From contig JASANE010001774.1 in NCBI GenBank assembly GCA_030248225.1, forward strand, positions 53,517 to 117,516: a stretch of 64,000 nucleotides of DNA, in the 5' to 3' direction. This stretch comes from Trileptium ribeirensis. Taxonomy: Eukaryota; Nematoda; Enoplea; Enoplida; Thoracostomopsidae. Below the pieces are notes generated by a model, which was not told the origin of the DNA, made no database searches, and saw only the letters and a program-made list of their open reading frames with translations. Each line of letters opens with the position of its first letter. Within the stretch, counting starts at the first letter, position 1. The position numbers and the translations under genes are program-made. Positions 24,084 to 52,213 of the stretch are shown piece by piece.

Positions 24084-24298
24084 GGCATAAGTCTAATATC
24101 GGGGCCCAAGAAATGAAAAAAATTTTTTGCTCCGATTTGCCTAAAATTTTGCATACGGGGGTTTTCCAGTATGGGGAATTCATTTTTGACACTTTTAGCG
24201 AAAAAAAATTTTTTGACCAAAAAAATGTTTTTTGACCCAAAAAATTTTGAAAAAATTTTTTTTGCCCAAAATCCACCCAAACCATTCTTTGACGCCAA
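24084..24298 (+). repeat. Merlin left TIR
   Basis: Left arm of the inverted repeat, ending near GACGCCAAC. Small indels in the A/T runs distinguish it from the right arm at 25037-25254. Confidence 0.85.
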
Positions 24299-24454
24299 CA
24301 GAAAAATCAACATATTCAACTTACTTTTTGGATTTGATGCAGTGCAGCTTGGTGAGCGCAACTAAGCAGCATCTCTTAAATTTCGTCGAGAGTCCTTCTT
24401 CATAATACACTTTGCGCTGCGTGCGACTGGGCGCTGCGTTGCTGGCTGTCTTAG

Positions 24455-24930: not shown

Positions 24931-25036
24931 AAACTAAGCAGGCGGTAAACGATGAAAGTGTTACAAAATTAGCTAGCGTGAGAAAAAGTAAACGAAATGT
25001 GAGAAGCGTGAGAAATCAAAAAAATTCAAAAAAATT

Positions 25037-25254
25037 CGTTGGCATCAAAAAATGGTTTTGGGTGAATTTCGGCAAAAAAAATTTTTTTCAAAATGTTTTG
25101 GGTCAAAAAAAATTTTTTTGGTCAAAAAATTTTTTTTCGCTAAAAGTGTCAAAAATGAATTCCCCATACTGGAAAACCCCCGTATGCAAAATTTTAGGCA
25201 AATCGGAGCAAAAAATTTTTTTCATTTCTTGGGCCCCGATATTAGACTTATGCC
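25037..25254 (-). repeat. Merlin right TIR
   Basis: Inverted counterpart of 24084-24298, abutting the right AGCTGCTG target duplication. Confidence 0.85.
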
Positions 25255-25262
25255 AGCTGCTG

Positions 25263-26996: not shown

Positions 26997-27050
<54 letters not shown>

Positions 27051-28130: not shown

Positions 28131-28137
28131 TTCCCGA

Positions 28138-29735
28138 GCTTTCTTGATTTGGGGTCTGGTTCCGGGGTCAGGAGTCAAAATGTGGGTTTTTGGCCCCATT
28201 TTACCCCATTTTAGTACCATTCACGGAAGCAAGGTTATTTTTATCTTAACTTTCGAATTGTTTCTCTGGATGGTTTTATTTCATAGTAAAATGATAAATG
28301 CCGGTGTCTCTTTTTTTGTTTTTCCATTAAGGATCTGGTTCTGGATTTATGGGGTTTCATGTACAGGGGTATGGCGTCCCAATGGCTCCTCGACCCAAAA
28401 TTTGAAAATTTGTTCTGACGTCGTGGACGGCTGATAAGTTTCACTTGGGGGTTTTCAGGCATGGGAAACTCATTGCCGGTATTGGTTTTGCTCTATGACC
28501 CATGGTTCAATGGGTATGGCGCCCCCATAATTCGGGTCAGAGGTCAAAAGGGTTTTCACCCCATTTTAGTAACCTTCACGGAAGCAAGCTTATTTATATC
28601 TTAAGTTTCGAATTTTATCTCTGGTTGGTTTTATTTCATAATAAAATGATAAATGCCGATACCTCTTTTTTGTTTTTCGGTTAAGGCTCCGGTTCTAGAG
28701 TTACGGGGTTTGAGGTATGGTGCCCCAATGGTTCCCCGACCCGAAATTCGAAAATTTGTTTTGAGGTCCTGGGCGGCCTAAAAGTTTGACTAGGGGATTC
28801 TTGGGCATGGGAAACTCATTGCTGGTATTGATTTTGCTCTGTTACCTATAGGTACGGGGTATGGCGCCCCAAAGGTTCGGGGTCAGAGATCTAAATTGGG
28901 GGTTGTCACCCCATTTTAGTACCCTTCACGGAAGCAAGGTTATTTTTATCTTAACTTTCGAATTTTTTAATCTGGATGGTTTTATTTCATAGTAAAATGA
29001 TAAATGCCGATGCCTCTTTTTTATTTTTCGATTAAGGCTCCCTTTCTGAATTTATGTGGTTTGAGGTACGGGGGTCTGGCGCCCAATAGTTCCTGGACCC
29101 AAAATTTGAAAATTTGTTTTGACGTATTGGGCGGCTGATAAGTTTTACCTGAGGGTTGTCGGGCATGGTGAACTCATTTCCTGTATTGGTTTTTCTCTAT
29201 GACACACGGTTCAATGGCGCCCCAAAGGTTCGGACTCAGAGAGGAAAATAAATGTTTTTTACCTCATTTTAGTACGCATGACGGAAGCATGATTATTTTT
29301 ATCTTAACTTTCGAATTTTTTTCTATGGTTGGGTTTATCTCATAGTAAAACGGTGAATACTGATGCCTGTTTTTTGTTTTTAGATTACGGCGCCGGTTCA
29401 TGGGGTTTTTAGATTACGGCGCCGGTTCATGGTGGAAGAACCACGGGGTTTTCATGGCACCCCCGTGGTTCTTCGACCCAAAATTCGAAAATCTGTTCTG
29501 ACGTCCTGGGCGGCTAAAACGTTGTACTTGGTGGTTTTTGGGCATGGCAAACTCATTGCTGGTGTTCATTTTGCTCTGCGATCCATGGTTCTATGGGTGC
29601 GGGGGTATAACTCTGCCATGGTTCATCGATCCAAAATTCCTAATTTTACTGTCACGTCCTGGGAGATGACAGCCTGCACTTGGGGGTTTTGGGGCATGCT
29701 AAACTTATTGCCGGTGTTAGTTTTGTTCTAACGTG
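28138..29735. repeat. ~352-bp tandem repeat, about 4.5 copies
   Basis: The landmark CACGGAAGCAAGGTTATTTT or its variants starts at 28222, 28577, 28927 and 29279 (spacings 355, 350, 352), with a partial last unit to ~29735. Each unit also has ATGGTTTTATTTCATAGTAA or a near match, GGCGCCCCAA.GGTTC and a GGCATGG.AAACTCATTG block. Copies differ by 10-20% by eye. Open frames inside it are not conserved between units, so it appears noncoding. Confidence 0.85.
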
Positions 29736-30620
29736 TGTGGTATTGTGTGATATCCCCATATAGCATATCGACGTATGCTATCGAGAGCTGATTGGCTTGC
29801 ACGCAAAAGGCGTAGGTGTACCTATGCTTCACTACGTTGTGCAATCTCGATAGAGTTGCTAGTCTTTTGGTGATATTGGGCCGACGTCGATTTTTAATGG
29901 CTGGTACCAGGCTGAATAGTTTCGAACCGTTATTATCTCTATTGGGAAGCACAAAATGGCATATATGCACTCGAGTCGCCAGTGTGAAACAATTTTAGGA
30001 CCATTATTTGCCATATATCAAATTAACAAGCCATAGCGTAATCAGGTAGTATGGGTACAAACAAGTACTGAACAGCATTGGAAACGGTGTCACATGTCGT
30101 AATGGCAGCGGCAGGGTGTCGGAGCCCTACCTCTCAGATAGACCGGTACGTACAGGCAACGGTGTCGAAAGCAACAATAGCATAAAGGAACAGTGTAGGC
30201 GACAATGTCCCAACACCCATCCCCTCTCAGAACGGTACATAGCAAATCTACAGTTACACCTTTGCCTTTTATGCATCAGACATGAGGCTACAAGCCTCCG
30301 TCTAGGGTGGGTGGTGTGGTAGCCCTGCGACTAGCCTGACGATAGTACAGACCCGTCAAAAACAAATTTAATGAAATTTATTATCATTGATGTTGAATAA
30401 ACGAAATTTCGACGAAGTGCAGTTTTGACTGAAACCCTTTGATTGTATTTTTTTCTGAACGACGTGACTGAACTTGGTTTAGAGTTAGCTGCGGTACCTA
30501 TTTCTTAGCATTGTAAAATATGAAGTGTAAGTGTCGCATTGCAGTACATGCATTTGGGGATTTTGTATGCGCGGTGTTGTTAATTTGTCAACTCAACCGA
30601 CTCCGAGTGCAACTGTGTGA
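29736..30620. other. Gene-free stretch before the retroelement
   Basis: No ORF or recognised repeat. If the retroelement has a left LTR it should lie in or just after this stretch, but I found no segment repeated downstream of 41.76 kb. Confidence 0.4.
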
Positions 30621-30627
30621 CTTCCAA

Positions 30628-30669
30628 CCAATAAATAGAGTGAGGCTAAACACAATCGTGCCTATAAAT
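30628..30669 (+). promoter_or_regulatory. Possible retroelement promoter (CCAAT plus TATA)
   Basis: CCAAT (30628-30632) and TATAAAT (30663-30669) are 30 bases apart, about 490 nt upstream of the Gag start. CGTG and CACG flank the TATA word symmetrically. It would suit transcription start near 30.69 kb. Inferred from motif spacing only. Confidence 0.35.
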
Positions 30670-31036
30670 TGCTGAACGCACGGCTGTCAATCTGCTGAGA
30701 AGCTGAACAGTAGCTGAGTTGTCTAGTGCGTTTTCCACTTTGATATGGCATTGTATTTGTAGCTCAGGTTCATATTGTGTTTATGCTTGTGCTATGTTAC
30801 AAATACATGTGTTGCTATTAGTCCAAAAAAACGATCATGTAGTCAGCATCAGTAAGATCCCTTACGACACTCCTCCCGATAATACAGCACCACTATCGTT
30901 CCTTTCCAATTAACAGTTAAGCTGTTAAATGTTGCGCCGCCAACGTCAGTACTATCAAAGATCAAGTTACGCGGATATCCACAATACAGCACCAATAACA
31001 ATTCAAACGCAACGACCTATACGATTACGAACGGGA

Positions 31037-31065
31037 CAGCTATAGCTATTTCTATAGCTGCAAGT
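31037..31065 (+). promoter_or_regulatory. Leader hairpin adjoining a candidate 5' splice site
   Basis: The arms CAGCTATAG (31037-31045) and CTATAGCTG (31052-31060) pair perfectly over 9 bp with a 6-nt loop. Three bases later comes GCAA|GTAAGC, a good donor (GT at 31064-31065), about 90 nt before the Gag ATG. Together with the acceptor at 37547-37548 it could produce a spliced mRNA for the third ORF, with the hairpin tuning donor use. Confidence 0.4.
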
Positions 31066-31079
31066 AAGCCTCATCATGT

Positions 31080-31103
31080 ATTCTAGTCTGAATATACAGG
31101 GGC
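31080..31103 (+). repeat. 24-bp inverted repeat, left copy
   Basis: ATTCTAGTCTGAATATACAG followed by GGGC. The exact reverse complement occurs at 44770-44793. The similarity stops sharply on both sides. A perfect 24-base match at this distance is not expected by chance. Confidence 0.9.
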
Positions 31104-31153
31104 AAATGAATAAATGGAGCGTTTAAATAAGTAAAAAAGGATATAATAAGAGC

Positions 31154-34100
31154 ATGAGAAAAATGCGGTTAGCGACTCCGACTTCTGATGCCGGAATAGA
31201 AGATTCAGTTTACATGGATGCCACCGTTATAGAGGCGGATATTAGGCCGAAAGTGCATTTAGGTGGTACAGGTGTTACATCTACTTTGCCAGTGATAGAC
31301 CCCGTTAGGGCTGAACAGCATACAGTGGCGGCGCCATTGCCGACTGCTCAGGTTTCAACTTTCGATATCCCGTCAGTATCTACAATGGTTCAGTCGGTAC
31401 CAGTTGTTGTGTCTACCTCGGTTATATCAGCTCCAACTTTGGCGACTGTAGTCTCGACTGGCCTTACGACTGTACCAACTGGTACTGCTTCTGCTGCGTG
31501 TACACATTGTTCGCATACGCACGCTGTCGCGCCTGCCCCTGCGCCAGCGCCAGCGACGGCGACTGCTCCTGCCATGCCACCGATTGTGGTTAACGTGCCA
31601 CCTCCGAAGGAACCGGTTAATATCGAAAGGTATGATGGCACATCAGACTTTGCTACATATTTTCGTAGGCTAGAAACGGAGTTTGAACTAGCAGGTGTGG
31701 AAAAGTCAAGTGATAAATTTCGTACACTGCGTAAGAAGTTAACGGATGCAGCTCGCAGTTTTATTGAACTATTAATGACTGGTCCAGAAGCGCCGGAGAC
31801 ATACGAAGACCTAGTGTATGAGCTGCACGAACGGTTTGCAGAAAGTAGAGAATTCGTAGATGAAGTCCAGAGGTTCCAACAAATGAGTCAAAGAAGTTCC
31901 GTGGCCGATTTCGCGGATGAGTTGGAATTGCAGTGGCGCAAGCGAATTGTTCCGTTGGAACTTGGTGATAGACACGCAGCCAACCTGTTGCGCAATACGT
32001 TTTTGCGAGGAATACGACGTGGGTTACGTTCACGCCTGATCCATGGTGATCAGTGGTCTTTTTATGAGTTGAAACGCCGAGCCGTACAAATTGAGCGCAC
32101 AGAAAAATTATTAGCGGGACCCGAGGAGGATGGAACTTCGCCACGATCCACAAATAGATCGGTTTCTCAACGGTCTTGGAGACCGAGCCAAAATGCTAGT
32201 GGTAGTGATGGAGCGACACCACGACGGAACAATGGTCGGCAGGCTCCAATGCGCATGAGTAGCGGAAACCAAAGTAACGACGTGAGAAACGGCCGCGTAG
32301 TAGAACGAGTTTCGGCAGCCTCGATTGTGTGTTATGACTGTGGTGCCACAGGGCATGTTCGTTCGCGATGTCCATATCGTGATGCACGCCTTCGTCAACA
32401 GGAACGCGGTATAGCGCGAGAAGGGATTTCTCGATCACCGCCAGTGCAACGTTCGTTAAATAATGCGGAATCCACAACGCCTAAGGAACTGTGGAAGTGT
32501 TACTTATGTGGTAAACCAGGTCACTTTGCTCGTGATTGTCGTCAGCGATCTGTGAACGTAGAGAAACAATTGACTGGAGATAATAGACGCCGTCCGGAAG
32601 CTAAGGCAGTACAATCTGTAGCTTTGGAGGCAATCGTTCGCCAAATGAATGATGTAGAGCGTCGCATGGATGGGCGGATGAATGATATTATTTCTCATTT
32701 GAAGTTGGACAGGAAAGTGGATGGGTCTGAAATCTCGCATTCACCATCACGAGTAGTGTTACCGAAGAATTCACGTCATCAAGTACTGGTAGAAAAGGTT
32801 CCTGAACGAGCCTTCGAAGAAAATTCGGAATTACAAAATGATACGCAAGTTTCGATAGCACAGGTAGAGATGTTAACTCGTCCTACCAAATCGTGTTTTT
32901 ATGTTGACGTGCAAATTGATTCGTATAAGTTACGGGGACTGGTAGATACGGGAGCTCAAATGACGATCATGCTCCAAGAAGTTTATGAGGAAAATTTTAA
33001 TCGGTATAAGTTGAACTCCGAAGTGATCCAGGTATTTGCTTTCGATGGTTCCCCAGCTAGTAAGACCCTGGGATGGTTCGAAGCATTGGTACATTTCGGG
33101 GAGCAGTCCCAGTATGTGCAAATTCACGTGGTACCGGATATGCCAGTTGCGATTGTCATCGGTGATGACATGTTACGGAAATTTCAAACCGTAATCGATT
33201 ATCAGAAAATGCGGATCCTGGTCAATGATAAACTTGTACGGTCGTGGTCTTTGGTCCAACGTAAAGAAACAACGTCTGTGGAGACTGGTTCTGGAGAAAT
33301 AATCAAGTCTGGAAAACTAACTGAAGTTCCAGTGGGTGCTTTTCATGTTTGCAGGGTATCTGTGGATACCGAAATTCCACCGGAAAGCACGAAGTTGGTA
33401 CCGTGTAACATTAACACGACTAATTATAATGGACAAAGTGTCATGGTAGAGTCCGATATAGAGATGCGATTCCAGCGACCTATACTTTGTCCGAATGCGG
33501 TAGTTAAAGTACAAGAGGGAATGGCTTGGGTACCTGTTACCAATTTAGAACAGCAGTCGTATAAGGTAAAAGTTGATGACGTGATGTCACATGTTACTGA
33601 GATAGTGGATACCGTTGCTGTTACGTCGACGGAAAAACCAGCGATGACTGATGTCGATTATTCTAAAGTCGTTACCAATAAGATTCAGATTAGGGCGAAA
33701 GAAGCTAAACGCTTATATAGGGAGTTAGCAGCGGAAATAACGCTAGATAAAGAAGCGGAATTACCAGAAGGGGTATCCCTAAAGGAAGCGGTTGCTACCG
33801 AAACCGAAAAACGAATTTTAGCGCGGTTGTTAGAACGCAATAGCGATGTTTTCGGGAGTTCCACAACACCACTTAGCCGAACGAATGTTTGGCGACATCC
33901 TATCGATACTGGTGATACCAAACCTATTCAGCAACGAATGCGACGTGCACCTTACGTGCATCGTGAGGAAATTTCTAAGCAAGTCCAGGCTATGCTGGAT
34001 GATGATGCGATTCAACCATCGATGAGTCCTTGGGCATCTCCTGTTGTTCTCGTCAAGAAAAAGACTGGAGATATGCGATTTTGTATCGATTATCGCATGT

Positions 34101-36448
34101 TGAACGATGTAACCAAGAAGGATAGCTTTCCTCTTCCACGAATTGACGATACGTTAAACGCCCTCAAAGGTGCGAAATATTTTACGACATTAGATTTGAA
34201 GTCAGGTTATTGGCGGGTAGAAATGGAACCTGAGGATGTCGAAAAGACAGCTTTCATTTGCCATGAAGGCCTGTTCGAATTTAAGGTAATGCCCTTCGGT
34301 TTAACTAACGCACCTGCTACGTTTCAAAGGATGATGCAAATCGTGTTGTCGGGCTATCTATTGGAATTTTGCCTGTGTTACATTGACGATGTTATCGTGT
34401 TCTCGCCAACGTTCGAAGAGCATTTGTGGGATATCCAATGCATGTTTAATCGTCTTCGTGATGCAGGGTTATCGATCAAAGGTAAAAAATGTGACTTTGT
34501 ACGACGAGAAGTATTATTCTTAGGTCATGTAGTATCGGAGAGTGGAATAGCACCAGATCCAGCGAGAGTTCAAAAGATTTTGGAGTGTGAAAGACCCCAA
34601 AACGTTACGGAAGTACGTTCATTCTTAGGGTTGACCGGATATTATCGTCAATTTATCGAAGGTTATAGTCTTATCGCCGCTCCATTGCATGGATTGACAA
34701 AAGGACCGAGTAAGTTTAATTCGGTAGAATCTCGCTGGACGGACCAGTGCCAGATAGCCTTTGATAAACTCAAGGTTGCACTGACTACAGCGCCTATCTT
34801 AGCGTACCCGAATCCAGTGAAGCCATTTAGGTTATACACCGATGCTAGTAACGAAGGTGTTGGCTTTATTTTGACACAATGTGGCGAAGATGGAAAGGAA
34901 CGAGTAATTCATTACGGTGGTAGAAAATTCCATGATGCTGAAACAAGATATAGCGTGACAGAAAAAGAATGCTTGGCCGTAGTACGAGCTATGGTGCAAT
35001 TCCGGCCATATTTGTTGGGTAGTTTTACTACCATCGTAACCGATCATGCTTCCTTAGTACAAATTCTAATGAAAACTCGTTCCATCGATCTGCTAACACC
35101 ACGCTTATTGCGTTTCGTAACGAGAATTCAAGAATTCGATTATGAATTGGTGTATAAACCTGGCAGACAGCACCTTAACGCTGACGCTATGTCGCGTCCA
35201 CCAATTTTGAAATCCACGCTGAATAATGAGCCAGTTGATAATTCAGAAGTACACCAGAAATTGGATAACGAATATCCTGACGAAGCGTTAGTAAAACGAG
35301 AAGCTAATCTCTTAAAGATTGTGGGCGTAGTTACGCAAAGCCCTAACGTAGTGACTGATGAAAATGACGAAATAACCGATCCACAACCTGGTCCGAGTGG
35401 AATGCAGGTAGATGTTCCTGTGGTGGAACGGGATCTGAATGACTATTTTGCGATTGGTCCGCCATGGGAAGCGGATGAAATCCGACTAGCCCAATCTTTG
35501 GACCCATTTACACGAGGAATGGTTCGTTTTCTGGAAGACCAAGAATTGGATCCTGAGTTAGCAGAGGATTTGCAACGACAGATCTTGTTGCAGGAAGATA
35601 GGTTTCACGTTCGAGATGGTGTTTTGTATTACGTGAGCCGAAAACGTAGACCTGTTCGCGCAGAAGCGTGCGAATTTCGTTTGGTACTACCTGAGGAATT
35701 TAGAGTAGTTGTGATGGAACAGGCTCACACGACAAAATACGCCGGTCATGTAGGATATAATCGAGCGTTGGCTAAGCTCGAACGAAAGTTTTATTGGGTC
35801 ACAATGAAGAAAGACCTCGAAGCGTTTATTAACGCATGTGTACCATGTGCTCGGCTTAAACCTGGTCCGAATCGTCGTGGACAGTTACAACCAATTCCTG
35901 CGATGGCCCCATTTCATATGGTAGGCGTAGATGTGATTGGTCCGTTACCAGTAACGCGTTCTGGGAACAAATATATAGTCAATTTTATTGACTATTTTAC
36001 CAAGTGGCCAGAAGCCTTCGCAACGTCAGATCAAACGGCCGTGACTATTGTTGATTTATTGCTGAACAAGATAGTACCCCGACATGGGGTACCGCGTGTC
36101 ATTTTGTCTGACCAAGGACCAGCCTTCACGTCTGAAGCGGCCAAGTTAGGAAGTCGAACGGTGTTCGCTACACCGTACCATCATCAGTGTAATGGTTTGG
36201 TGGAACGATGGAATCAAACGTTAATGGCTATGATAAAGCCACTTACTGAATTAGAGCCTAATAATTGGGATTCATATGTCGATAGCGCGCTTTTTGCATA
36301 CCGAACTACGGTACATGTATCAACGGGCCAAACCCCGTTTTTTCTGATGCATGGTCGCGACCCAGATTTACCTCTAGAAAACCCGTTATTGTCCATAACG
36401 GAAGGTGAAGTTCCGACCAACATGTACAAAAACTGTTGGATACGTTGA
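31154..36448 (+). CDS. gag-pol: Ty3/gypsy-type Gag-Pol polyprotein (Gag, protease, RT, RNase H, integrase)
   Basis: A single 1764-codon ORF with no gag/pol frameshift. Order: a Pro/Ala/Thr-rich N-terminus; a retrotransposon Gag core (~150-320); two CCHC zinc knuckles starting at C393 and C449; a retropepsin-type protease with DTGA at D598; an RT domain with FGLTNAPATFQ and YIDD at 1076-1079; RNase H with YTDAS (D1230) and a DAMSRPP end; and an integrase with an HHCC zinc domain from H1525. Catalytic residues D1593, D1653 and E1684 follow. Only 30 residues separate the last Asp and Glu, against 35 in most retroviral-type integrases, so a small deletion may have occurred. The frame stops after ~80 more residues, and the integrase C-terminus continues in the -1 frame in the next ORF. 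The order PR-RT-RH-IN defines Ty3/gypsy (Metaviridae). The long intact frame implies recent activity or constraint. Confidence 0.95.
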   Translation: MRKMRLATPTSDAGIEDSVYMDATVIEADIRPKVHLGGTGVTSTLPVIDPVRAEQHTVAAPLPTAQVSTFDIPSVSTMVQSVPVVVSTSVISAPTLATVVSTGLTTVPTGTASAACTHCSHTHAVAPAPAPAPATATAPAMPPIVVNVPPPKEPVNIERYDGTSDFATYFRRLETEFELAGVEKSSDKFRTLRKKLTDAARSFIELLMTGPEAPETYEDLVYELHERFAESREFVDEVQRFQQMSQRSSVADFADELELQWRKRIVPLELGDRHAANLLRNTFLRGIRRGLRSRLIHGDQWSFYELKRRAVQIERTEKLLAGPEEDGTSPRSTNRSVSQRSWRPSQNASGSDGATPRRNNGRQAPMRMSSGNQSNDVRNGRVVERVSAASIVCYDCGATGHVRSRCPYRDARLRQQERGIAREGISRSPPVQRSLNNAESTTPKELWKCYLCGKPGHFARDCRQRSVNVEKQLTGDNRRRPEAKAVQSVALEAIVRQMNDVERRMDGRMNDIISHLKLDRKVDGSEISHSPSRVVLPKNSRHQVLVEKVPERAFEENSELQNDTQVSIAQVEMLTRPTKSCFYVDVQIDSYKLRGLVDTGAQMTIMLQEVYEENFNRYKLNSEVIQVFAFDGSPASKTLGWFEALVHFGEQSQYVQIHVVPDMPVAIVIGDDMLRKFQTVIDYQKMRILVNDKLVRSWSLVQRKETTSVETGSGEIIKSGKLTEVPVGAFHVCRVSVDTEIPPESTKLVPCNINTTNYNGQSVMVESDIEMRFQRPILCPNAVVKVQEGMAWVPVTNLEQQSYKVKVDDVMSHVTEIVDTVAVTSTEKPAMTDVDYSKVVTNKIQIRAKEAKRLYRELAAEITLDKEAELPEGVSLKEAVATETEKRILARLLERNSDVFGSSTTPLSRTNVWRHPIDTGDTKPIQQRMRRAPYVHREEISKQVQAMLDDDAIQPSMSPWASPVVLVKKKTGDMRFCIDYRMLNDVTKKDSFPLPRIDDTLNALKGAKYFTTLDLKSGYWRVEMEPEDVEKTAFICHEGLFEFKVMPFGLTNAPATFQRMMQIVLSGYLLEFCLCYIDDVIVFSPTFEEHLWDIQCMFNRLRDAGLSIKGKKCDFVRREVLFLGHVVSESGIAPDPARVQKILECERPQNVTEVRSFLGLTGYYRQFIEGYSLIAAPLHGLTKGPSKFNSVESRWTDQCQIAFDKLKVALTTAPILAYPNPVKPFRLYTDASNEGVGFILTQCGEDGKERVIHYGGRKFHDAETRYSVTEKECLAVVRAMVQFRPYLLGSFTTIVTDHASLVQILMKTRSIDLLTPRLLRFVTRIQEFDYELVYKPGRQHLNADAMSRPPILKSTLNNEPVDNSEVHQKLDNEYPDEALVKREANLLKIVGVVTQSPNVVTDENDEITDPQPGPSGMQVDVPVVERDLNDYFAIGPPWEADEIRLAQSLDPFTRGMVRFLEDQELDPELAEDLQRQILLQEDRFHVRDGVLYYVSRKRRPVRAEACEFRLVLPEEFRVVVMEQAHTTKYAGHVGYNRALAKLERKFYWVTMKKDLEAFINACVPCARLKPGPNRRGQLQPIPAMAPFHMVGVDVIGPLPVTRSGNKYIVNFIDYFTKWPEAFATSDQTAVTIVDLLLNKIVPRHGVPRVILSDQGPAFTSEAAKLGSRTVFATPYHHQCNGLVERWNQTLMAMIKPLTELEPNNWDSYVDSALFAYRTTVHVSTGQTPFFLMHGRDPDLPLENPLLSITEGEVPTNMYKNCWIR

Positions 36449-36990
36449 CTAGCACTTGGAAAGAAGCTAGTAAATCCGCACGTTTGGCCCAAGACGCCTA
36501 TAAGCGATATTTTGATCGAAGAGCACGCATTCGTGACTTTTTGCCTGGCGATGTAGTGCTAATGCGAAGGCCGGAGAAAATCGATTCTCGTAGGATCACC
36601 AACAAATTTCATCCGAATTTCGAGCGACTATATCGAGTAGTCAAGGTACAAGGTCCTAATCTGGAGGTAATACGATTAGGTGATGCGCGACGTAAAAGTA
36701 AGACTTATAACAAGAGTCTGTTTAAGCATTTTGGTGGTGAGCCGCGCGATTATTTAGAATACGAGCAACGTTTACGCGCGATTGAAATCGATAGCGAAGA
36801 AATCGATTGGTTCTGTGGAGAATGCGGGCAGAGTTATGAAGAGGACCTCCGCATAGGTGAAGATGACGTCAACTGGATTGAATGTGATTACTGCCTCGAA
36901 TGGTATCACTTTCGATGTGTAAAATTGGAGAAAGAGCCGGAAACGACATTATGGTATTGTCCGGCCTGTGTAAAACGATTATGTACATAA
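36436..36990 (+). CDS. Integrase C-terminal extension with PHD finger (-1 frame)
   Basis: This 184-codon frame overlaps the end of the Gag-Pol ORF by 13 nt in the -1 frame and continues the integrase. Residues ~8-100 match the usual C-terminal module after the gypsy core (basic helix, LPGDVVLMRRPEK, then a small beta-rich GPY/F-like segment). Residues 125-178 then form a canonical C4HC3 PHD finger: C127, C130, C150, C153, H158, C161, C175, C178, with the conserved W173 two residues before the seventh ligand. The core W-I-E-C-D-x-C-x-x-W-Y-H-x-x-C-V is close to the H3K4me-reading class. By analogy with chromodomain-bearing gypsy integrases it could tether integration to marked chromatin, which is inferred. 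The ATG at 36436 is probably not a real start. The frame break sits at a run of five A and may be a mutation, a sequencing error or, less likely, programmed slippage. Confidence 0.88.
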   Translation: MDTLTSTWKEASKSARLAQDAYKRYFDRRARIRDFLPGDVVLMRRPEKIDSRRITNKFHPNFERLYRVVKVQGPNLEVIRLGDARRKSKTYNKSLFKHFGGEPRDYLEYEQRLRAIEIDSEEIDWFCGECGQSYEEDLRIGEDDVNWIECDYCLEWYHFRCVKLEKEPETTLWYCPACVKRLCT

Positions 36991-37606
36991 ACGGTAAATA
37001 CTATATAATTGTGCATACTTCTTATTCTATCTTTCTATTTTCCGGTGTTGAATGAAGCAGGCCAAAGTCGGGAAATGCGTATGGTATAGTCTTCGATAGC
37101 GATGAAGCAACGCTTTCACTAACTGGTTGGTTGCCAGTGCTGGCCCGTTAAAAAGATCCAATATGGTGGCCATGTGTACGTGAACAGGTAAAGTAATTTG
37201 CCTTTACTTCTTTTTCTGTCGTTTCTACTGTCAAATGGAGTGAACAATGGACAATGCATAGCGTAGCATAACAGTAATTCCTTGGCAATGGCTGAGTGCT
37301 AAGTGTGGGATCAGCAGCGTTATAGTGACGAGATAACTTCTAATGAAGATCTATTGCCGAGAACGGTCATGAGAACTGTCTAATTTCATCGAAGTAATGG
37401 AGCACTGAAGGTGCTCGCTACGCAGATGGAGTGTTAAGCATGACGTGTTCGATATGGTTTAAATGGAATAAAAAGAATCCGACATGGTGACGTTCTGATG
37501 GTGTGCTTTATAAACTGTTATAAACAATTATTGCATTTTAGATTTCAGGCGATCGTTATATACCGACGGCTACTTAAACAGCGATACGGTTTGTAATCAA
37601 TAACAA
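36991..37606 (+). other. Spacer between integrase and third ORF
   Basis: 616 nt without coding signal. It ends with a pyrimidine-containing stretch and TTTTAGATTTCAG (37536-37548), a plausible splice acceptor for a subgenomic mRNA. Nothing else is recognised. Confidence 0.5.
37536..37548 (+). promoter_or_regulatory. Candidate 3' splice site upstream of the third ORF
   Basis: TTTTAGATTTCAG closely fits an invertebrate acceptor and lies 58 nt before the first ATG and 131 nt before the better-placed ATG (37679). It pairs logically with the leader donor at 31064. Splicing is inferred, not shown. Confidence 0.4.
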
Positions 37607-40600
37607 TTGTTATATTTTGCGTTGCTCAACGACCTATTCTACAACGTCAATAATTACAACGCCACTACAACAGCTGAAATGGCGGACTCGAATTGGGATA
37701 GCGGTAGTGAAACCGGGTCCTCAGAGGGTTCTGATTGGTTGTCCGACCTTGAGTCTGAGCAGGGAGATAACCCTCTTGAGCGTTCACTTAACGGGATAGA
37801 ACCACAGTTAACTTGGTCAGAGGGACAGCAAGGTCCACCGTGGAAGGATCGTAACCACCCAGTCTGGAATCTATATGCGTGGACCAGTGGGTTAGAAATG
37901 GTGGGTCGAGAGTGGATGCACCCCGCTAGTGTAGTTGTGGTAGACGCCCGTGACCAAATTGAGTCAGCGATAGGTATTATCGAGCGTTCAGCTACCAACT
38001 TAATAGCGTGTGATATGGAGGGTGTAAACATCAGCTATCGTCAACAGCAGCAATTTCGAGAAGCGTGGGAGAAGTATTTGGACACGCCTGAGAAGGATCC
38101 GTTTGACGTCTGCTGGCGATGGTTGCCACGTAATGTACGACTCTGGGTCGATCCAAAATGGTTAGCTTATGCAGCAGGGTGGCAACGTACAGCAGCGGCT
38201 ACATTACAAGTCGCCACGATCGAAGGAGTCGTCATCATTTTCGACTTAATGGCGCTTGGTCCGGATATGCCTGCAGCGTTATATGCGTGTATTGCGTCAG
38301 AAGCACGACTCAAAATATGGTGGGCGATGAATAACGATGAAGGATTCTGGAACGTGCGTTATTTGCAATACAATCAGCCGTTCCCACATGCTAATTCTAT
38401 GGATCTGCAAGCGGCAGTAGGTCGTCGATATAGTTTACGACGATTTTTCTTTCTGTTTACTGGACGCATTCGACAAGATCCGACGCCGTATGGTACAACA
38501 CTATTGGGAGGAATCCGTGTACGACAAGTAGGTCCTGGAAATTGGGTGCTGAACTTTGAAGAGTATCGACGCTTCGTCCGATATAGTGCCCATGATGTCA
38601 TGCTCATTGATGGGGCATTGTTTATCGCACATCGGCGTGGTACGCCTCCACCGATGGGACGCCATGATGTTAATCGTTTATGGCATTTGATTGAGCAATT
38701 TCCGCGCATATTTCGAGCGTTTACAACGGATACGCGTGGCTTAACGGTGCGAGTTAACCTCGATGCCGTATCAAATCGCCGTGGTTATCAAGAAAGTATT
38801 GCCGATAAAGTGGCTCAATGTGCTGGTTATTGGCGGCCAAAGGGCCGATGGAATGTCGAAGAGCATAGCAGCCTATATCAAATTAATGACCAAGATAATG
38901 GCGAAGCTGCTTTCGTAATTGACCTTGGAGGAAACTTACATCGCGATACTGATCGATTATTTGCAGCAACGGCAGCGCAATTAAATCGACAATTGGGTCA
39001 AAATATGCGTTTGGATCCCATTGACTTGGATCATACGCCGGTTAGCGAAATTCCGGAATCCGAAATGCGCTATAATCGCGATTATCTTCCGGATGGCATG
39101 GATGAGTTTAACGCATGGTATGAGGCGGAAAAACGACGACGAGCTAAACGCAGTCGACGTCGTTCGCGTATACAGCGACACCAGGATGTCGTCGCTGGTC
39201 CTGGAGATGAAACGGAGTTAGAGGAACGTCGTGAAGACATGTTTGACGAAGAGATGAATCAGCAAGCTATCCAATGGGAAACCGAGGGAGTGTCTGTGCG
39301 TGAAATTCGCGACCGGATAATGATAGCTTATGATGAGCATTATGGCGGAGCATGTGTTGTTACCCGCCCAGCTGTATTGCAACGTTTGGATCGCCAAGTA
39401 TTACGGGTAGAAGACGCAGCTTCTAATGCTTCATCAGCTGCCACAACACCGCCTGCGGTTCGCACACCGGAACCTGCGTCAGATGACTCGGTACGCATAA
39501 TAGGATCTGTAACGGTCACTGCTAGTCCAGTAGATCCTGTCCAATACCATTCTACTTGGGTCGAAAATGAGCAGATTGCTCACGAAAACCAGCGAAAGTG
39601 CCAGAAAATGGGAGGATTAGCAGCGCAGGAAAGCCTAGCAACCCTGATGGGGATTACTGTAGCTTCGGAATCCGTGACTGAATCAGTTGGTAGAAGGAAA
39701 ACCCCTTTACGAATCGTTAGTGTAGATTCGTCCGCAGTTACGTTACCAGCCCAGGAAACAATGGATCAGTCCACATTAAGTAGGATACGGTCTGATTCAG
39801 AAACGGCGGTAGTGTCATCGAGTGGGTTAACTTTACCAGTGTCTACCGCGTCTAGTTTAGTAACAGTAGCTCAAGCAGAACCTGCGATGTCAGATATTGT
39901 GCCAATGACGGTACGACCAGTTAGGGGACGAGGGAGAGCTAGTATTATGTTCTCACCCAGCCTTCCCCAGTCGGCACGTATGCGGTTGTCGCACGCTATT
40001 CGAGCGCCGTTTCAACAACCTATTTCCGTGGTGAATCCAGCACGACCGCATGTTATGGATATGCTCACTAATCAACTAGTTACTGTCGCCTATGAGCACG
40101 TTCAACAACAAGAACAAGTTGCGGCTGTTGCCGAACAACCGCCTACTACAATGGTAACGAGTGGTCAAGAAATTTCGCCTTCGTTGCATATTGATTTGCA
40201 GTTAGGAAATTTACGTGGTACGGAGTTAGCACAAGTGCGTGAACAATTGCAACAAGCCGTACCTCCATCAGCAGTGCAATTGGATGGTATGCTGTTAATG
40301 CAACAAATGCAATTAAATACGCGAGTCGATACTGCGTTGCATTACTTGCGTCGAATGGACGAAAGCTATCGAGCTCAATTGGAAGCCCGACAAATGGAAC
40401 TCGATCACGCACATCGTCAGAATGCTGAACTCAAACTGCGATTACGGGAGAGAGAGTCGCCGGAACGCAAAACGCGGGGAACGCAAACCAAAAAGAAAGC
40501 GCAACGAACTGCAAGTCGTCAAGCACGAGCAGAACGTCGGTACGAGTACGAAAGAGTAACTAGCGAGTCCAGCGATAGTGATCGTGAAGCGAGACGACGA

Positions 40601-41758
40601 CAGCGAGGCAAACAACGTGCCTCATCAGTTATTGTACCACGACAGCGACAGGAAGTAGTTTATCATGTGGAGCAACAGTCAACATCGGCGGCAACTTTTG
40701 CGCCGTCTTTTACGTCAACGCCAGCCGTGTCAACGTTAACGGTGGCTACGGAAAAACCACGAAAGTCCAGTGATGTAGAAATCTTTGAAGAAGCTTCGGC
40801 TGTTACGCCCACGAAAGTGGTTTCGACGGTATCGGAGGAACAAGGAGCGACTGCTATAGCAGCAGTACCGCCAGCTGTGCAACCAGCATCGTCACAACGC
40901 GGTGCCGGTCAATTAGCGCTACCGAGCGAACGACGAAGTGGAACGGAAATGACTTCACTACATTTTAATGGTAATGACTTACGAACCGGTCGTATTACAC
41001 CGTTTGGTAACCGGTTAATCTACCATTATTTCACGTTTTATCAACCTGGGTTCAATGAGCCGATGCCACAACGTATGAATATGTTGTATCAGCATCTGCG
41101 TGATGAATTAAAACGCGAATTCAAGCAAATTGGTGAACGTGGACGGCATGTTAGCGAACGTGATTTGATTGACATTTTCTTCAAATGGGAAGAACGCGTT
41201 CGAAATATTATTTTTCAAAAACAATGGGACGTTATTATTACGCCAGAACTATACGATCTTTTCGTACGTCGATTAGCGAGTATGTTGCGTGGATTCGTTT
41301 ACGAAATGCTGCGGAGGCGCAGCATTGCGATACAGTATTTTCCACAACTACTTTTTACTGGCTTTAGTCGACGCAAATGGGAAAGCGACGTCCAACGTGA
41401 TATGCGACGTTACGCCGATACGCGATCAGGTATTTCGAGTCAAGTAGCCCGCATTCGTGACTATGTGTTTCCGAATACGGAATATCAGCGTCTACGAGAC
41501 GAAGTCGACAAATTGGAATGTCAACTAAATGACCAACAAACGCAGGGAGAACCGGCACGTGAGCAACGGGAACGATTACAACAGTTGATTGCTCGAGTTT
41601 CGAAACAAACGCGACAACAATTTTCAGATGCGTTTCTGAACGAACTTCAATTCGTTACGCGATGGTATGATCGACGTCACGATTGTCCAGGGCAACCGTT
41701 ATCTATGCCCTTGGAACATGATTGGCCGTTATATTTACCGAAACCACGTTGGAACTAA
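37607..41758 (+). CDS. Third ORF: DEDDy 3'-5' exonuclease-like protein with coiled coils, in the env position
   Basis: A 1383-codon ORF, uninterrupted, on the retroelement strand. Translation may start at Met25 (37679, GAAATGG), since the first 24 residues look like translated leader. An acidic Ser-rich tail (~30-60) precedes a DEDDy-type fold: ExoI CDMEG (D136, E138), a hydrophobic strand pair with IIFDL (~209-213), ExoII within WAMNNDE (D244), then MDLQ (265-268) and ExoIII YSAHD (Y326, D330). Spacing fits the RNase D/EXD1/Egalitarian group. A basic patch KRRRAKRSRRRSR (~510-524) may be nuclear-targeting. A long Ser/Thr/Ala-rich region follows, then a coiled coil (~900-950), a Lys/Arg-rich stretch, an unrecognised Trp/Phe/Arg-rich C-terminal domain (~1118-1383) and a second coiled coil (~1290-1340). 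There is no signal peptide or membrane segment, so it is not an envelope protein. Its similar codon style, orientation and position argue that it belongs to the element. The nuclease role is inferred from motifs. Confidence 0.82.
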   Translation: MLYFALLNDLFYNVNNYNATTTAEMADSNWDSGSETGSSEGSDWLSDLESEQGDNPLERSLNGIEPQLTWSEGQQGPPWKDRNHPVWNLYAWTSGLEMVGREWMHPASVVVVDARDQIESAIGIIERSATNLIACDMEGVNISYRQQQQFREAWEKYLDTPEKDPFDVCWRWLPRNVRLWVDPKWLAYAAGWQRTAAATLQVATIEGVVIIFDLMALGPDMPAALYACIASEARLKIWWAMNNDEGFWNVRYLQYNQPFPHANSMDLQAAVGRRYSLRRFFFLFTGRIRQDPTPYGTTLLGGIRVRQVGPGNWVLNFEEYRRFVRYSAHDVMLIDGALFIAHRRGTPPPMGRHDVNRLWHLIEQFPRIFRAFTTDTRGLTVRVNLDAVSNRRGYQESIADKVAQCAGYWRPKGRWNVEEHSSLYQINDQDNGEAAFVIDLGGNLHRDTDRLFAATAAQLNRQLGQNMRLDPIDLDHTPVSEIPESEMRYNRDYLPDGMDEFNAWYEAEKRRRAKRSRRRSRIQRHQDVVAGPGDETELEERREDMFDEEMNQQAIQWETEGVSVREIRDRIMIAYDEHYGGACVVTRPAVLQRLDRQVLRVEDAASNASSAATTPPAVRTPEPASDDSVRIIGSVTVTASPVDPVQYHSTWVENEQIAHENQRKCQKMGGLAAQESLATLMGITVASESVTESVGRRKTPLRIVSVDSSAVTLPAQETMDQSTLSRIRSDSETAVVSSSGLTLPVSTASSLVTVAQAEPAMSDIVPMTVRPVRGRGRASIMFSPSLPQSARMRLSHAIRAPFQQPISVVNPARPHVMDMLTNQLVTVAYEHVQQQEQVAAVAEQPPTTMVTSGQEISPSLHIDLQLGNLRGTELAQVREQLQQAVPPSAVQLDGMLLMQQMQLNTRVDTALHYLRRMDESYRAQLEARQMELDHAHRQNAELKLRLRERESPERKTRGTQTKKKAQRTASRQARAERRYEYERVTSESSDSDREARRRQRGKQRASSVIVPRQRQEVVYHVEQQSTSAATFAPSFTSTPAVSTLTVATEKPRKSSDVEIFEEASAVTPTKVVSTVSEEQGATAIAAVPPAVQPASSQRGAGQLALPSERRSGTEMTSLHFNGNDLRTGRITPFGNRLIYHYFTFYQPGFNEPMPQRMNMLYQHLRDELKREFKQIGERGRHVSERDLIDIFFKWEERVRNIIFQKQWDVIITPELYDLFVRRLASMLRGFVYEMLRRRSIAIQYFPQLLFTGFSRRKWESDVQRDMRRYADTRSGISSQVARIRDYVFPNTEYQRLRDEVDKLECQLNDQQTQGEPAREQRERLQQLIARVSKQTRQQFSDAFLNELQFVTRWYDRRHDCPGQPLSMPLEHDWPLYLPKPRWN

Positions 41759-42747
41759 AACAATATTTGTCGTTAGATTTTTCGTCAATGGGGCGCCATA
41801 ATAAACGGTAATAGTTATAACCTTAACAAGTATTAGTATAACCTTACTAATTGTGTCGTCATGGTTACACATTTTGGTGTATCGCGAACGTTTAATATTA
41901 ATTTCGTCTTCAAATACGTCGCGAATTTGATGTCGAACAATTACGGTAATGAACATTATGGAACTATCATGAGTCCTGGGTTACAGGAACTCTTATCGAC
42001 ATTATATATTTCGCCATGGTCGAGATGGACAATTTAATTTTGCCTCATCATGGTCACATACAACAATGGCAACAACATTTATAGATATTGACATTATATG
42101 AAATGAACATTGTAAAGTTAACGCTATTTGTTTATGTATTTTTCTTATATTTGTCTGGTATATACATTTTGTTATAAGAACTTGTAGGATCGACTAATAT
42201 TTTGCCTCGTCATGGATGGATAAACGATATATGCCTGCATCAATCGCATTATTCTTCACCAATAACAATATATACTGTGGTAATATATATGACGAATCGA
42301 GCTAGACTCGTTAAATTTGGTAAATTGAGGGTAGCCCGTATTGATTTGTATTACTTATTTTCAGCATAACTTGTGCTATATTGTGCCTTTAGAAAAATTC
42401 CATATTATTTTTCATTCACAAAATTTACAAAATTTCATAAAAAAATTTTTTTAAATAATTATAAAACAAAAATCCAAAAAACAACAAAAATTTAAAAAAT
42501 TCCAAAAAATTTTCTATTTCTATTTTCACTTATTTTCATTTTGTCATAATTCTTGTCATTTACGTTTGCTCATAATAAGTATACATGTACTGCCATAATA
42601 GCGTTGGGTTTCCAAACAATTGGAGCTTTCATATATATATTTGATGTTGCTTGTCATATTATTTGCCATTACTTGTTATTCATATTTGTTATTGCTTGTT
42701 TTCAGGTTATTACCCATGCCGGGACGTCATGGGCTTACTAAGGGGGG
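41759..42747 (+). other. 3' noncoding part of the retroelement
   Basis: No gene. AATAAA at 41800-41805, about 40 nt after the third stop codon, is a possible polyadenylation signal. A run of 150 nt without G (42393-42542) lies here, and the stretch ends at a polypurine-like AAGGGGGG. Confidence 0.5.
42393..42542. repeat. 150-nt stretch without G
   Basis: Not one G on the plus strand. A/T-rich with scattered C. It precedes the larger G-free tract and may be of the same nature, though A/T-richness makes it less striking. Confidence 0.8.
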
Positions 42748-42750
42748 TGT
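42740..42750 (+). promoter_or_regulatory. Polypurine-tract-like AAGGGGGG followed by TGT
   Basis: AAGGGGGG (42740-42747) directly followed by TGTTGGGG has the form expected of a plus-strand primer site abutting an LTR that begins TG. The matching left LTR was not found, so this remains a candidate. Confidence 0.4.
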
Positions 42751-42920
42751 TGGGGCTGGTGCCTTTTTCACCACAAAATTTTTCTTTTTCTTTTCACTAA
42801 AGGCCGCCCCCACGCCGCCCTGGTATTCCCTGTCGCCCTCGGCATGGCATATGAGCGTAATATGTACGTAAATATCTATATATAATTTGCTATATATTAT
42901 AAATTATAAAACTAGCTATG

Positions 42921-43690
42921 TATTTACCTATAAATATATAAAATATATTATATCTAATAAAATCCCAAAATTCACCCATACCCATAAATTACCCAAAACC
43001 TAAATTTCATACTTAAAAACCTCCTAAAACCTATTCTTTCCTTTTAAATATCACTTTGCCCAACCCATATCCCATATTCACCCACCCTCTCCTTCTAAAC
43101 CCAAAATTCTACCCAAAATCCATTTTTCTACTAAAATTCAAACCCCTCCCTCTCCCCCAAACCTCCACCAATTTCCCTAAAATTTTCATATCTTTTTCAC
43201 ATCACTACCCTCATCCACATATTAAACCCCCTTCTTCCTTTTCTTCTTTATTTCCTATAAATTTACCCTTTCCAAAAATATTCTTTTCTTCCCTTTTTCT
43301 CCATTTTTCATACATCAACCATTCCCTCAAAACTCAACCCCCATCCCCCAAATTTTAATATCCTTTTTTACTTACCACCCCTATTCATATATCTACCCCA
43401 CCCCTTTCCCACTTTTCTATTTTTCATAAATTTCCATTTTCCAAAATTCCCATTTTTCCCCAACTTTTCACATTTTACAAACATCTCCCATTTTATCAAA
43501 TCTTACTCCCCACTCCTCAAATCTTCAATACCACCTCCCCTACCTACCCCCTTCATCATATTAAAATTTCACAATCCCCCTCTCTCTACTTTTCTCAAAC
43601 CACACCCCATCTCTTTACCCCATTTCTCCTTTCAAATTTTTCATCTAAAATCCTTTTTAAATTTTATAATAAATATATAATATTATTATC
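42921..43690. repeat. 770-nt nearly G-free, C-rich tract
   Basis: The plus strand has a single G (43058) in 770 nt, with roughly equal A and C and more T. Boundaries are sharp: normal G content resumes at 43691 (CGCGGC). It is not a simple tandem repeat, since words such as CCCATTTT and CCCCC recur irregularly. The open frame 43056-43358 follows from the lack of G (no TAG or TGA possible) and is not a gene. RNA from this strand could form almost no stable structure. Confidence 0.9.
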
Positions 43691-45800
43691 GCGGCAAGCG
43701 CGTATATTTTAATATATTACGGTATTGTTTTGTTGGCGCCTATGTAGCGATATTATTATTTCTAATTATATACTTGTTCTTGTACTGAATTTTGGATGAT
43801 TATGCAATAATAATGGTTGTAGTTCTTTTAGTTTTGTTAATTACCTAGCTAATTTAGGGACTGTTTCCGGATTTTTACGGCTACGTGGCGTTTTAACAAT
43901 GACGGTTTTTTTGTATCTCTCGAGCAGTGGCGTGTAAAGATTGACTAATTTATTCTTATGGATATTAGTTCTGTTCCAGAGTAGATCGGTAACTTAGCTA
44001 GGAGTAGGGAAAGGATATACGCAGACGTCGATGTGAGTTTCACGGATAGCAAATTCTTAACGTTTTACTGTTTTCAATGCGTTCGTTCAACGTAGTTACA
44101 AGATTTGGTGGATAGACTCGACGGGTTTAATACTGTTTCGCATTCAGTTGCTTCTGTGTATTTTCGTGTTTATTGATATTACTATTTACTGGAACTATAG
44201 CGCCGGTTGGCGACATTATCGGTTTGAGCCTGTAGTTGGAGTTAGCTTTTCTGGAATTTCGATCGTGCAGTGTTACTGTTCTGCCCAGAGCTGTTCTTTG
44301 GCTAGAGTTAAGCGAGTTTCCTCGAAACGGTATAACTATTTCTATGTCACAGCATGTGCTCAACAGTGTTCAAACCAGTTTATGGCCAAGTGTTACCCGC
44401 CGCCCGTAGTTTGTGTCACGAGCTAGGTCAAGGTTATGGACATTCTCGTTAAAGAACACCAAGCAAATTGGGGATAATTATATACCGGTTTTCGGAATGA
44501 TGCTGCAATGGGTTATAACGGCTATTTGAACCAATGCGTAAAAAGGGAACGACGTTGTAACTGGAGTAAAGAGCTAATGTTATGTGATTCGAACCTGCCG
44601 TATTTTATTATTTATTTGGCGTGGTACTGACGTGTATTACGGACTCAAAATGATGTGTCACGAGTGTTAATATTGTAGAGTGTCCGAACGCATTCTTGCA
44701 ATTGGAGATTCTTCCTGCGCAGTAATATGCGTTTAATAGTTTACATTATAATTGGTTTAAAGTGGTAGAGCCCCTGTATATTCAGACTAGAATGCCGTGT
44801 TTCTGTGCGCAGGTACCACGTGTTAGGTGCGTGTATACGAACAGCCCTTCGTCATATGGTAAATAAACTATTATTACTCGTTGGCTGTTGTTGGACGCGA
44901 TAACACAGAGCGTGATACAACTTAATTGTTAACTCATTGAGCTATTAGTGCCGTTCATCAAAAGACACTAGGATTTATTATCACCACTTCCCTGGTTCGC
45001 CCAGACCACGAACTCGCGCGTCCCAGCTACTCGTAGATTTATTGGTGGCCTAACTATATTCTTTGTGTGTTATAGTAGCGCTGGGGGTCGGAGCGTCGCG
45101 TAAGCACAGAGCTACACCGCCGTGGAAAAAGATTAAGCTCCGACACGCAGCTTTCCGGACGGCTACACCCGTACGTTTATTTAATTACCTTATCGTATGG
45201 TCTTAGAATTACGCTAATAGTTTCCTTATGTTAACTTTCCCGCTTCCGAACGGCTAGCTAGGCGCGTGTTATAACTACTACTTGGTTATGGTTAAGTTAC
45301 GCCAGTGATCTCAGATTTTAATTGGGAAAATTACCTAATAGGAATAAAATAAATAACTTAGTAAGTACCCATTTGTATAGCATACATGTGGCTCAACGTT
45401 AATTTCTGCAAAACTGGGTACTAGAGTTAGCTACGATCATTTGCTATTTCTATGCCAGGTATTCACTTACAGATCCGCAATAAGGCATGAAATCATTCGA
45501 ATACTAAAAACCGATCAAATTCTGTTAGTCGTAAACGTTCGCTTTAAAATTCAAATAGAGCACAACGTGCTAGCTAGGTAATCGAATCAATCGTAAGTCA
45601 AAAATCCATAAAATAGTAATTAGGTTAAGCACTGTCGACAATCGGAAATAAATTCGCAATTGTGCTTGATGAATATCGAAGCACGACTAAAAGCGTAGAA
45701 GCTTTCGAGCGCTAAGCTTAGGTCACCTCACTCCAAGACAACTCGCTCGAGACTAAGCAAAAGAAAAAGAAACGAAGCTAACGCATGCTAGCTAATTTAG
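43691..45800. other. Gene-free stretch downstream of the G-free tract
   Basis: Normal base composition, no supportable ORF. A 92-codon Cys-rich frame at 44148-44426 has a hydrophobic start but no other support. It contains the right copy of the 24-bp inverted repeat. Confidence 0.45.
44770..44793 (-). repeat. 24-bp inverted repeat, right copy
   Basis: Exact reverse complement of 31080-31103. The two face inward like terminal repeats around the 13.7 kb that includes all three retroelement ORFs, but no target duplication is visible beside them. Confidence 0.9.
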
Positions 45801-52098: not shown

Positions 52099-52213
52099 TT
52101 AAGAGGTCATATGTCGCCTTGTGTTGATCAGCCTTAGCTTCCATTGTCTTTAGCGTTTCATGTTTAAATCTATTCCGTTCAACGCTCTCGTCATACGTCA
52201 AATTATCATTATC

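What the first reader, a model, noticed from the sequence alone, without database searches (positions are those of the whole stretch)
37607..41758. Retroelement-linked 1383-codon ORF with a DEDDy 3'-5' exonuclease domain in the env position
Seen: an uninterrupted ORF 617 nt downstream of integrase, same strand, with D136-x-E138, D244 and Y326-x3-D330 in DEDDy order, a basic patch, coiled coils and a ~265-residue C-terminal domain of unknown type. Known: this exonuclease group includes RNase D, WRN-type and EXD1/Egalitarian proteins, and the last two touch RNA localisation and the piRNA pathway. Third ORFs of gypsy elements are usually env-like, and this one has no signal peptide or membrane span. 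Inference: the element may carry its own nuclease for cDNA/RNA trimming or error removal, or to disturb small-RNA silencing. I do not know of a described gypsy element with this ORF.
Basis: partly seen in the sequence, partly recalled or inferred. Interest (0 to 1): 0.88.

Follow-up and report, generated by a model that had tools for sequence, protein, structure and literature searches.

The report
Retroelement with probable captured nuclease gene
A jumping gene of the retrovirus-like kind, present in many copies in one unnamed eukaryote genome, carries an extra large gene that is kept about as strictly as its replication enzymes and probably encodes an RNA/DNA-trimming nuclease; similar extra genes have been described in tiny freshwater rotifers.

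Summary
The 1383-codon ORF is real and belongs to a Ty3/gypsy-type LTR retrotransposon, not to the host. It lies between pol and the 3' LTR and is repeated (44 matches, some of them pieces; seven full-length stop-free copies). All 20 loci read, window included, carry pol-tail sequence upstream; three insertions have paired LTRs and 5-bp target duplications. dN/dS is 0.040-0.091 (21 pairs), like pol (0.057-0.085, 10 pairs). A conserved 3'-splice-site-like sequence suggests spliced expression, like env. The DEDDy reading is probable, not proven: the bare motif occurs in 1045 of 2000 shuffles; standard searches are negative and both AlphaFold models unusable. A DEDDy profile with cheap long gaps puts all five catalytic residues in register (1 of 600 shuffles does); stricter gap costs lose this. 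The kind is known: Juno and Vesta gypsy-like elements of bdelloid rotifers carry RNase D-like DEDDy ORF3s (PMC5408684). New here: a large ORF3 without detected relatives in the collections searched, a PHD-tailed integrase, pol-level constraint, and two LTR-end/primer-site-like relics. Host unnamed. New variant of a known kind.

The parts
31154..36448 (+). gag-pol frame (gag with two zinc knuckles, protease, reverse transcriptase, RNase H, integrase); homology to other copies starts at about 31170, so the 5' part of the element is missing or replaced here
   Evidence: ORF list; Pfam (RVT_1 6.7e-38, RT_RNaseH, H2C2, rve, zf-CCHC, RVP; the gag model itself is below its cut-off); copy comparison
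36436..36990 (+). integrase C-terminal tail with a PHD finger, in another frame here; part of one open gag-pol frame of 2072 codons in copy c4
   Evidence: Pfam PF00628 6.7e-08
36991..37678 (+). spacer between pol and ORF3, variable with indels among copies except for short conserved blocks
   Evidence: 12-row alignments
37153..37174 (+). LTR-end plus primer-binding-site-like relic 1
   Evidence: 86-91% identity over 22-24 nt to the LTR end/PBS of other copies; conserved block
37476..37492 (+). LTR-end plus primer-binding-site-like relic 2
   Evidence: 12-14 nt identity to the LTR end/PBS; conserved block
37536..37548 (+). 3'-splice-site-like sequence (TTTTAGATTTCAG followed by GCGATCG)
   Evidence: third most conserved 20-nt block of the spacer; TTTCAGGCG in 12 of 12 rows, TTTTAG in 11 of 12
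37679..41758 (+). ORF3, 1359 aa from the first ATG (1383 codons from TTG 37607)
37901..38662 (+). probable DEDDy exonuclease domain, residues 99-352, with D136, E138, D244, Y326, D330 and a stretch of about 45 residues after ExoI that the compared DEDDy proteins lack
   Evidence: dN/dS 0.024-0.034 in alignment columns 101-400
39131..39169 (+). basic patch, residues 509-521
   Evidence: sequence
40280..40456 (+). coiled-coil-like stretch, residues about 892-950 (by eye)
   Evidence: sequence
40925..41755 (+). C-terminal domain of unknown type, residues 1107-1383
   Evidence: no Pfam family over cut-off
42739..42747 (+). polypurine tract (TAAGGGGGG) next to the 3' LTR
   Evidence: same in window, c2, c4 and c6; c3 differs at its 3' LTR start
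42748..45145 (+). 3' LTR, 2398 bp, TGTTGGGG...CTCCGACA, with an internal C/T-rich stretch

Best explanation
ORF3 is a third gene of a Ty3/gypsy-type LTR retrotransposon, needed for its spread. Shown: position between pol and 3' LTR, presence inside complete insertions, constraint like that on pol. Inferred: it is translated from a spliced subgenomic RNA using the acceptor at 37548, as env is in retroviruses. Inferred: its N-terminal part is an RNase D/EXD1-like DEDDy 3'-5' exonuclease, probably active because all catalytic residues are kept, brought to the element's own RNA or cDNA by the basic and coiled-coil-like parts, where it trims 3' ends during cDNA synthesis or RNA processing. Inferred: the gene came in by recombination or template switching between retroelement RNAs, leaving two LTR-end/primer-site relics upstream.
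For: Repeated, with seven full-length stop-free frames; pol tail upstream in 20 of 20 loci read; the start of ORF3 downstream of three of three sampled pol places whose contig went on; LTR pairs and 5-bp TSDs in c2, c3, c6; dN/dS 0.040-0.091 over 21 pairs against 0.057-0.085 for pol over 10 pairs; conserved acceptor; with gap costs 9/0.25 a DEDDy profile puts its five catalytic columns on D136, E138, D244, Y326, D330, done by 1 of 600 shuffles (20 of 600 hit four or more) and by none at equal score, and 6 of 1000 shuffles and 0 of 24 decoy windows score as high; ExoI is also the best local match to plant EXD1-like proteins and to a host exonuclease gene; PBS/LTR-end relics; precedent in bdelloid elements.
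Confidence: 0.55

Rival explanations
1. ORF3 is a real, constrained element gene whose N-terminal part is not a DEDD nuclease; the motif is a chance resemblance and ORF3 is an unknown structural, RNA-binding or envelope-substitute protein.
For: Standard profile and sequence searches negative; bare motif in 1045 of 2000 shuffles; hhalign at chance; one decoy outscored ORF3 in Z against the EXD1 profile; structure models unusable.
Against: Five blocks in correct order and register in the gap-tolerant profile test; ExoI chosen as best local match in other comparisons; this region is among the most constrained.
Confidence: 0.28
2. The domain is DEDD-derived but works by binding, as EXD1 does: it sequesters or steers small-RNA precursors or the element RNA, and so blunts host silencing or localises the RNA (the Egalitarian parallel is recalled, not tested).
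For: Best local matches are to EXD1-like proteins and share the D-x-E-G-V form; large non-catalytic part with basic and coiled-coil-like stretches; EXD1 and Maelstrom are called catalytically inactive, RNA-binding derivatives in PMC5408684.
Against: All five catalytic residues are kept in 7 of 7 full-length stop-free copies, whereas a binding-only protein would be free to lose them; the host and its small-RNA pathway are unknown.
Confidence: 0.15
3. ORF3 is a host gene next to or inside one retroelement by accident.
For: The window copy alone could be read so: no 5' LTR is recognisable here.
Against: 44 matches in the genome, pol tail upstream in 20 of 20 loci read, LTR pairs and TSDs around pol plus ORF3 in three insertions; the five host PF01612 matches lie on other contigs.
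Confidence: 0.02

Closest known systems
Juno and Vesta LTR retrotransposons of bdelloid rotifers with DEDDy ORF3 (Rodriguez, Kenefick and Arkhipova 2017, PMC5408684)
   Same: Gypsy-like PR-RT-RH-IN pol, ORF3 after pol, RNase D-like DEDDy exonuclease said to keep its catalytic residues, TG...CA LTRs (abstract, outline, passages and sections 8 and 13 seen).
   Different: The paper gives LTRs of 159-551 bp, a dUTPase domain, and DEDDy ORF3s without coiled coil or TM, and found sampled variation (env-like and GDSL ORFs, not DEDDy) mostly neutral. Here: LTR 2398 bp, no dUTPase match, PHD finger after integrase, ORF3 of 1359 aa with long extra regions, dN/dS at pol level. No sequence comparison with Juno or Vesta ORF3 was made.
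Terminons / Athena Penelope-like elements with DEDDy ORFs (PMC5408684, PMC6431247)
   Same: A retroelement carrying a DEDDy 3' exonuclease gene (passages seen).
   Different: Penelope-like reverse transcriptase at telomeres, up to 40 kb; that they lack LTRs and integrase is recalled.
EXD1-like and RNase D cellular exonucleases (PF01612)
   Same: Order and register of ExoI, ExoII and ExoIII residues in the gap-tolerant profile.
   Different: No significant score by standard methods; an extra stretch of about 45 residues after ExoI; the plant EXD1-like proteins often carry a KH domain (PF00013) and lack the Tyr.
env genes of gypsy-type elements
   Same: Same position; probable spliced message.
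   Different: No env family matched; signal peptide and membrane span not tested here.

Membership tests
Ty3/gypsy-type LTR retrotransposon | gag, protease, RT, RNase H, integrase in this order | tested here: met
   Pfam order in 31154-36448; gag by zinc knuckles, the gag model being below its cut-off
Ty3/gypsy-type LTR retrotransposon | Paired LTRs with TG...CA ends, PBS, PPT and a short target duplication around the ORFs | tested here: met
   Copies c2, c3, c6 for LTR pairs and TSDs; PBS after the 5' LTR end in 6 of 7 copies scanned, PPT in window, c2, c4, c6; not met for the window copy itself, whose 5' LTR was not found
Ty3/gypsy-type LTR retrotransposon | RT phylogeny inside Ty3/gypsy | not tested
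   No tree was built
ORF3 as gene of the element | Moves with the element and is under selection as an element gene | tested here: met
DEDDy 3'-5' exonuclease (PF01612, RNase D/EXD1-like) | Significant sequence or profile similarity | tested here: not met
   suggestive only
DEDDy 3'-5' exonuclease (PF01612, RNase D/EXD1-like) | ExoI D-x-E, ExoII D, ExoIII Y-x3-D in order with the surrounding blocks | tested here: inconclusive
   All five in register with gap cost 9/0.25, two with 11/0.5, none with 11/1
DEDDy 3'-5' exonuclease (PF01612, RNase D/EXD1-like) | DEDD (RNase H-like) fold | tested here: inconclusive
   AlphaFold pLDDT 40.4 and 37.2, no fold match
DEDDy 3'-5' exonuclease (PF01612, RNase D/EXD1-like) | Metal-dependent 3'-5' exonuclease activity | not testable with these tools
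   Bench assay needed
Juno/Vesta DEDDy ORF3 group | dUTPase in pol and short LTRs | tested here: not met
   No dUTPase match; LTR 2398 bp
Juno/Vesta DEDDy ORF3 group | Sequence grouping with bdelloid retroelement DEDDy ORFs | not tested
   Those sequences were not fetched; the protein searches listed no relative

The most novel reading that the evidence does not exclude
A gypsy-type element, unlike the described Juno and Vesta elements in build, has made an extra exonuclease an obligatory replication protein: a 1359-residue fusion of an active DEDDy nuclease with its own RNA-binding and oligomerising parts, expressed like env from a spliced RNA and kept as strictly as reverse transcriptase. 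It would be an LTR retrotransposon with its own 3'-end trimming or proofreading nuclease, acquired by priming-site template switching that left two primer-site relics.
Probability: 0.3. Interest if true: 0.82.

Novelty: new variant of a known kind. Interest (0 to 1): 0.62.

Why it matters
Apart from the rotifer cases, whose use is unknown, neither my recall nor my paper searches gave a reverse-transcribing element that carries a 3'-5' trimming or proofreading nuclease. A family in which such a gene is under pol-level constraint, with several intact copies, gives direct material to ask what the nuclease does for the element (end trimming, error removal, or escape from small-RNA silencing), and argues that nuclease ORF3s are recurrent and selected rather than chance cargo.

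Tried and rejected
Rejected: host gene by accident. Rejected: ORF3-less sister copies, at first suggested by 40 of 55 pol places without a listed ORF3; both lists are capped (34 of 992 and 55 of 10031 candidates scored), and of the four such places I read, three have the start of ORF3 and one contig ends in the spacer. The other 36 of 40 were not read.

Led nowhere: structure prediction and fold search; protein-wide searches with the full ORF (7990 candidates scored) and the domain (2098 candidates), which need shared 5-residue words; IMG/VR scans with ORF3 and pol; NCBIfam; tRNA search for the primer tRNA in 27 loci; Rfam on the window; host identification by mitochondrial COX1 (not completed); a genome count of the acceptor pattern (not completed). 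The programmed-frameshift idea for the recurrent 2-nt difference near 40450 was dropped: it is a GA-run length difference in 5 of 20 rows.

A shuffle control was faulty (it re-read one result) and is not used; one search replaced it. The strict motif was written after seeing the sequence and is not used as evidence. Gap cost 9/0.25 was the first setting tried, chosen because of the visible long insertion; the two stricter settings were run afterwards and are reported. The failed positive control used a plant protein (P0120) that itself lacks the ExoII Asp and has gaps at the ExoIII columns, so it is a poor control. Rows dropped: two of 13 copies asked for (L016, L019) had no anchor, leaving 12 rows with the window; one search used the same 12. 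In one search rows L009 and L014 have a one-residue gap that shifts my fixed positions, and L011 is in two pieces; these three are not counted. For pol dN/dS five copies were taken, for ORF3 seven, all with open frames.
Full report
WHAT IS THERE. The ORF at 37607-41758 (+) has 1383 codons from a TTG and no stop. The first ATG is at 37679 (1359 aa); upstream of it copies carry indels, and the ATG context is kept in the aligned rows. [quoted passage not shown] In copy c4 gag-pol including the PHD finger is one open frame of 2072 codons, so the frame break near 36436-36448 belongs to the window copy.

IT IS PART OF A MOBILE ELEMENT. The window lies in an unnamed 687-Mb assembly (that it is a eukaryote is my inference from size and content). 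ORF3 has 44 matches there, some being pieces of one copy; seven are full-length and stop-free at 95-100% identity. The tool scored 34 of 992 candidates, so counts are lower bounds. All 20 loci fetched, window included, carry homology to the pol tail directly upstream. Copies c2, c3 and c6 have paired LTRs (5' LTR starting TGTTGGGG, ending CTCCGACA) and 5-bp duplications GTTTT (c3), GTATT (c6), CAAAT (c2), read by eye; for c4, the fourth copy fetched that far, the LTR start was not matched, and c3's 3' LTR start is altered. LTR pairs are 98.4% and 92.5% identical (c3, two pieces), 98.4% and 97.7% (c6), 90.2% and 91.4% (c2), 91.8% in both pieces (c4). The window's 3' LTR is 42748-45145 with a polypurine tract before it. 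Its 5' side is unlike the other copies before 31170; in 24000-31200 only short matches of 36 and 65 nt to LTR sequence were found.

CONVERSE TEST. Among 55 pol places listed, 15 have a listed ORF3 downstream and 40 do not, but both lists are capped. I read four of those 40, about 1 kb or less each: in three ORF3 begins after pol at 91-95% identity (one with an internal deletion), and in the fourth the contig ends in the spacer. I saw no pol copy shown to lack ORF3; 36 of 40 were not read.

SELECTION. For the seven full-length stop-free copies, 21 pairs give dS 0.11-0.28 and dN/dS 0.040-0.091. Columns 101-400, 501-600 and 801-900 are most constrained (0.014-0.034); columns 1-100, 601-700 and 1301-1386 least (0.15-0.20). 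A 950-codon pol segment in five copies gives 0.057-0.085 over 10 pairs. Downstream flanks are mostly 80-90% identical in DNA (pieces 77-93%) while the seven proteins are 95-97% identical to the window's. ORF3 is thus held about as tightly as pol. Copies were chosen for open frames, which favours low values for both genes alike. The bdelloid study found sampled env-like and GDSL ORF3 variation mostly neutral; DEDDy ORFs were not in that test.

EXPRESSION AND ORIGIN. In the variable spacer, blocks stay conserved over 12 rows: ATAAACTGTTATAAACAATT and TTTTAG[A/C]TTTCAG followed by GCGATCG before ORF3 (TTTCAGGCG in 12 of 12, TTTTAG in 11 of 12), a pyrimidine-rich block at 37018-37037, and two short blocks resembling the LTR end plus primer binding site. 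The latter, at 37153-37174 and 37476-37492, match the LTR-end/PBS junction of other copies over 22-24 and 12-14 nt (pairwise E-values on short subjects, weak taken singly). The core TGGTGGC or TGGTGAC stands at both places in 9 of 12 rows and at one place in 3 of 12. Inference: ORF3 is made from a spliced RNA, and the relics are left by recombination or template switching at priming sites; selection for some use of these blocks is not excluded.

WHAT IS KNOWN. Rodriguez, Kenefick and Arkhipova 2017 (PMC5408684; abstract, outline, passages and sections 8 and 13 seen) report RNase D-like DEDDy ORF3s in Juno and Vesta gypsy-like elements and in Athena elements of bdelloid rotifers, at least two acquisitions, activity not shown. 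Two reviews repeat this (passages seen). My searches for other cases (titles and abstract starts in the listings only) showed none, within an open-access library. So the kind is known. Differences here: long LTR, no dUTPase match, PHD-tailed integrase, a large ORF3 with basic and coiled-coil-like parts, no relative found, pol-level constraint.

VERDICT. Element gene: near certain. DEDDy exonuclease: probable. Trimming or proofreading role: inference. New variant of a known kind.

Noticed in passing
window 36436-36990: PHD finger at the C-terminus of the integrase (PF00628); a paper search with PHD finger, gypsy, integrase and ORF3 terms listed nothing.
   Followed up: partly
window 37153-37174 and 37476-37492: Two conserved blocks that look like the LTR end plus primer binding site inside the pol-ORF3 spacer.
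   Followed up: partly
window about 40445-40456: The GA-dinucleotide run in ORF3 is 2 nt shorter in 5 of 20 rows (L010, L014, L015, L016, L020), breaking the frame at the same place: repeated slippage, shared ancestry or sequencing error.
   Followed up: partly
window 52209-56063: Satellite-like tandem array of a 254-bp unit, 99% matches over the first part.
   Followed up: no
window 28199-29399: Tandem array of a 353-bp unit, 3.4 copies, 79% matches.
   Followed up: no
window 24454-24751 (-): ISXO2-like transposase fragment (DDE_Tnp_IS1595, E 7.5e-9), flanked by an inverted repeat of about 224 bp at 24076-24299 and 25038-25261.
   Followed up: no
window 31080-31103 and 44770-44793: A 24-nt perfect inverted match between the sequence just before the truncated gag and the 3' LTR, perhaps a trace of the event that removed the 5' end.
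   Followed up: no
L033/L034 (G000:C15565): Sequence upstream of copy c14's ORF3, first LTR and then gag-side sequence, recurs downstream of it, as in a tandem pair of elements sharing an LTR.
   Followed up: no
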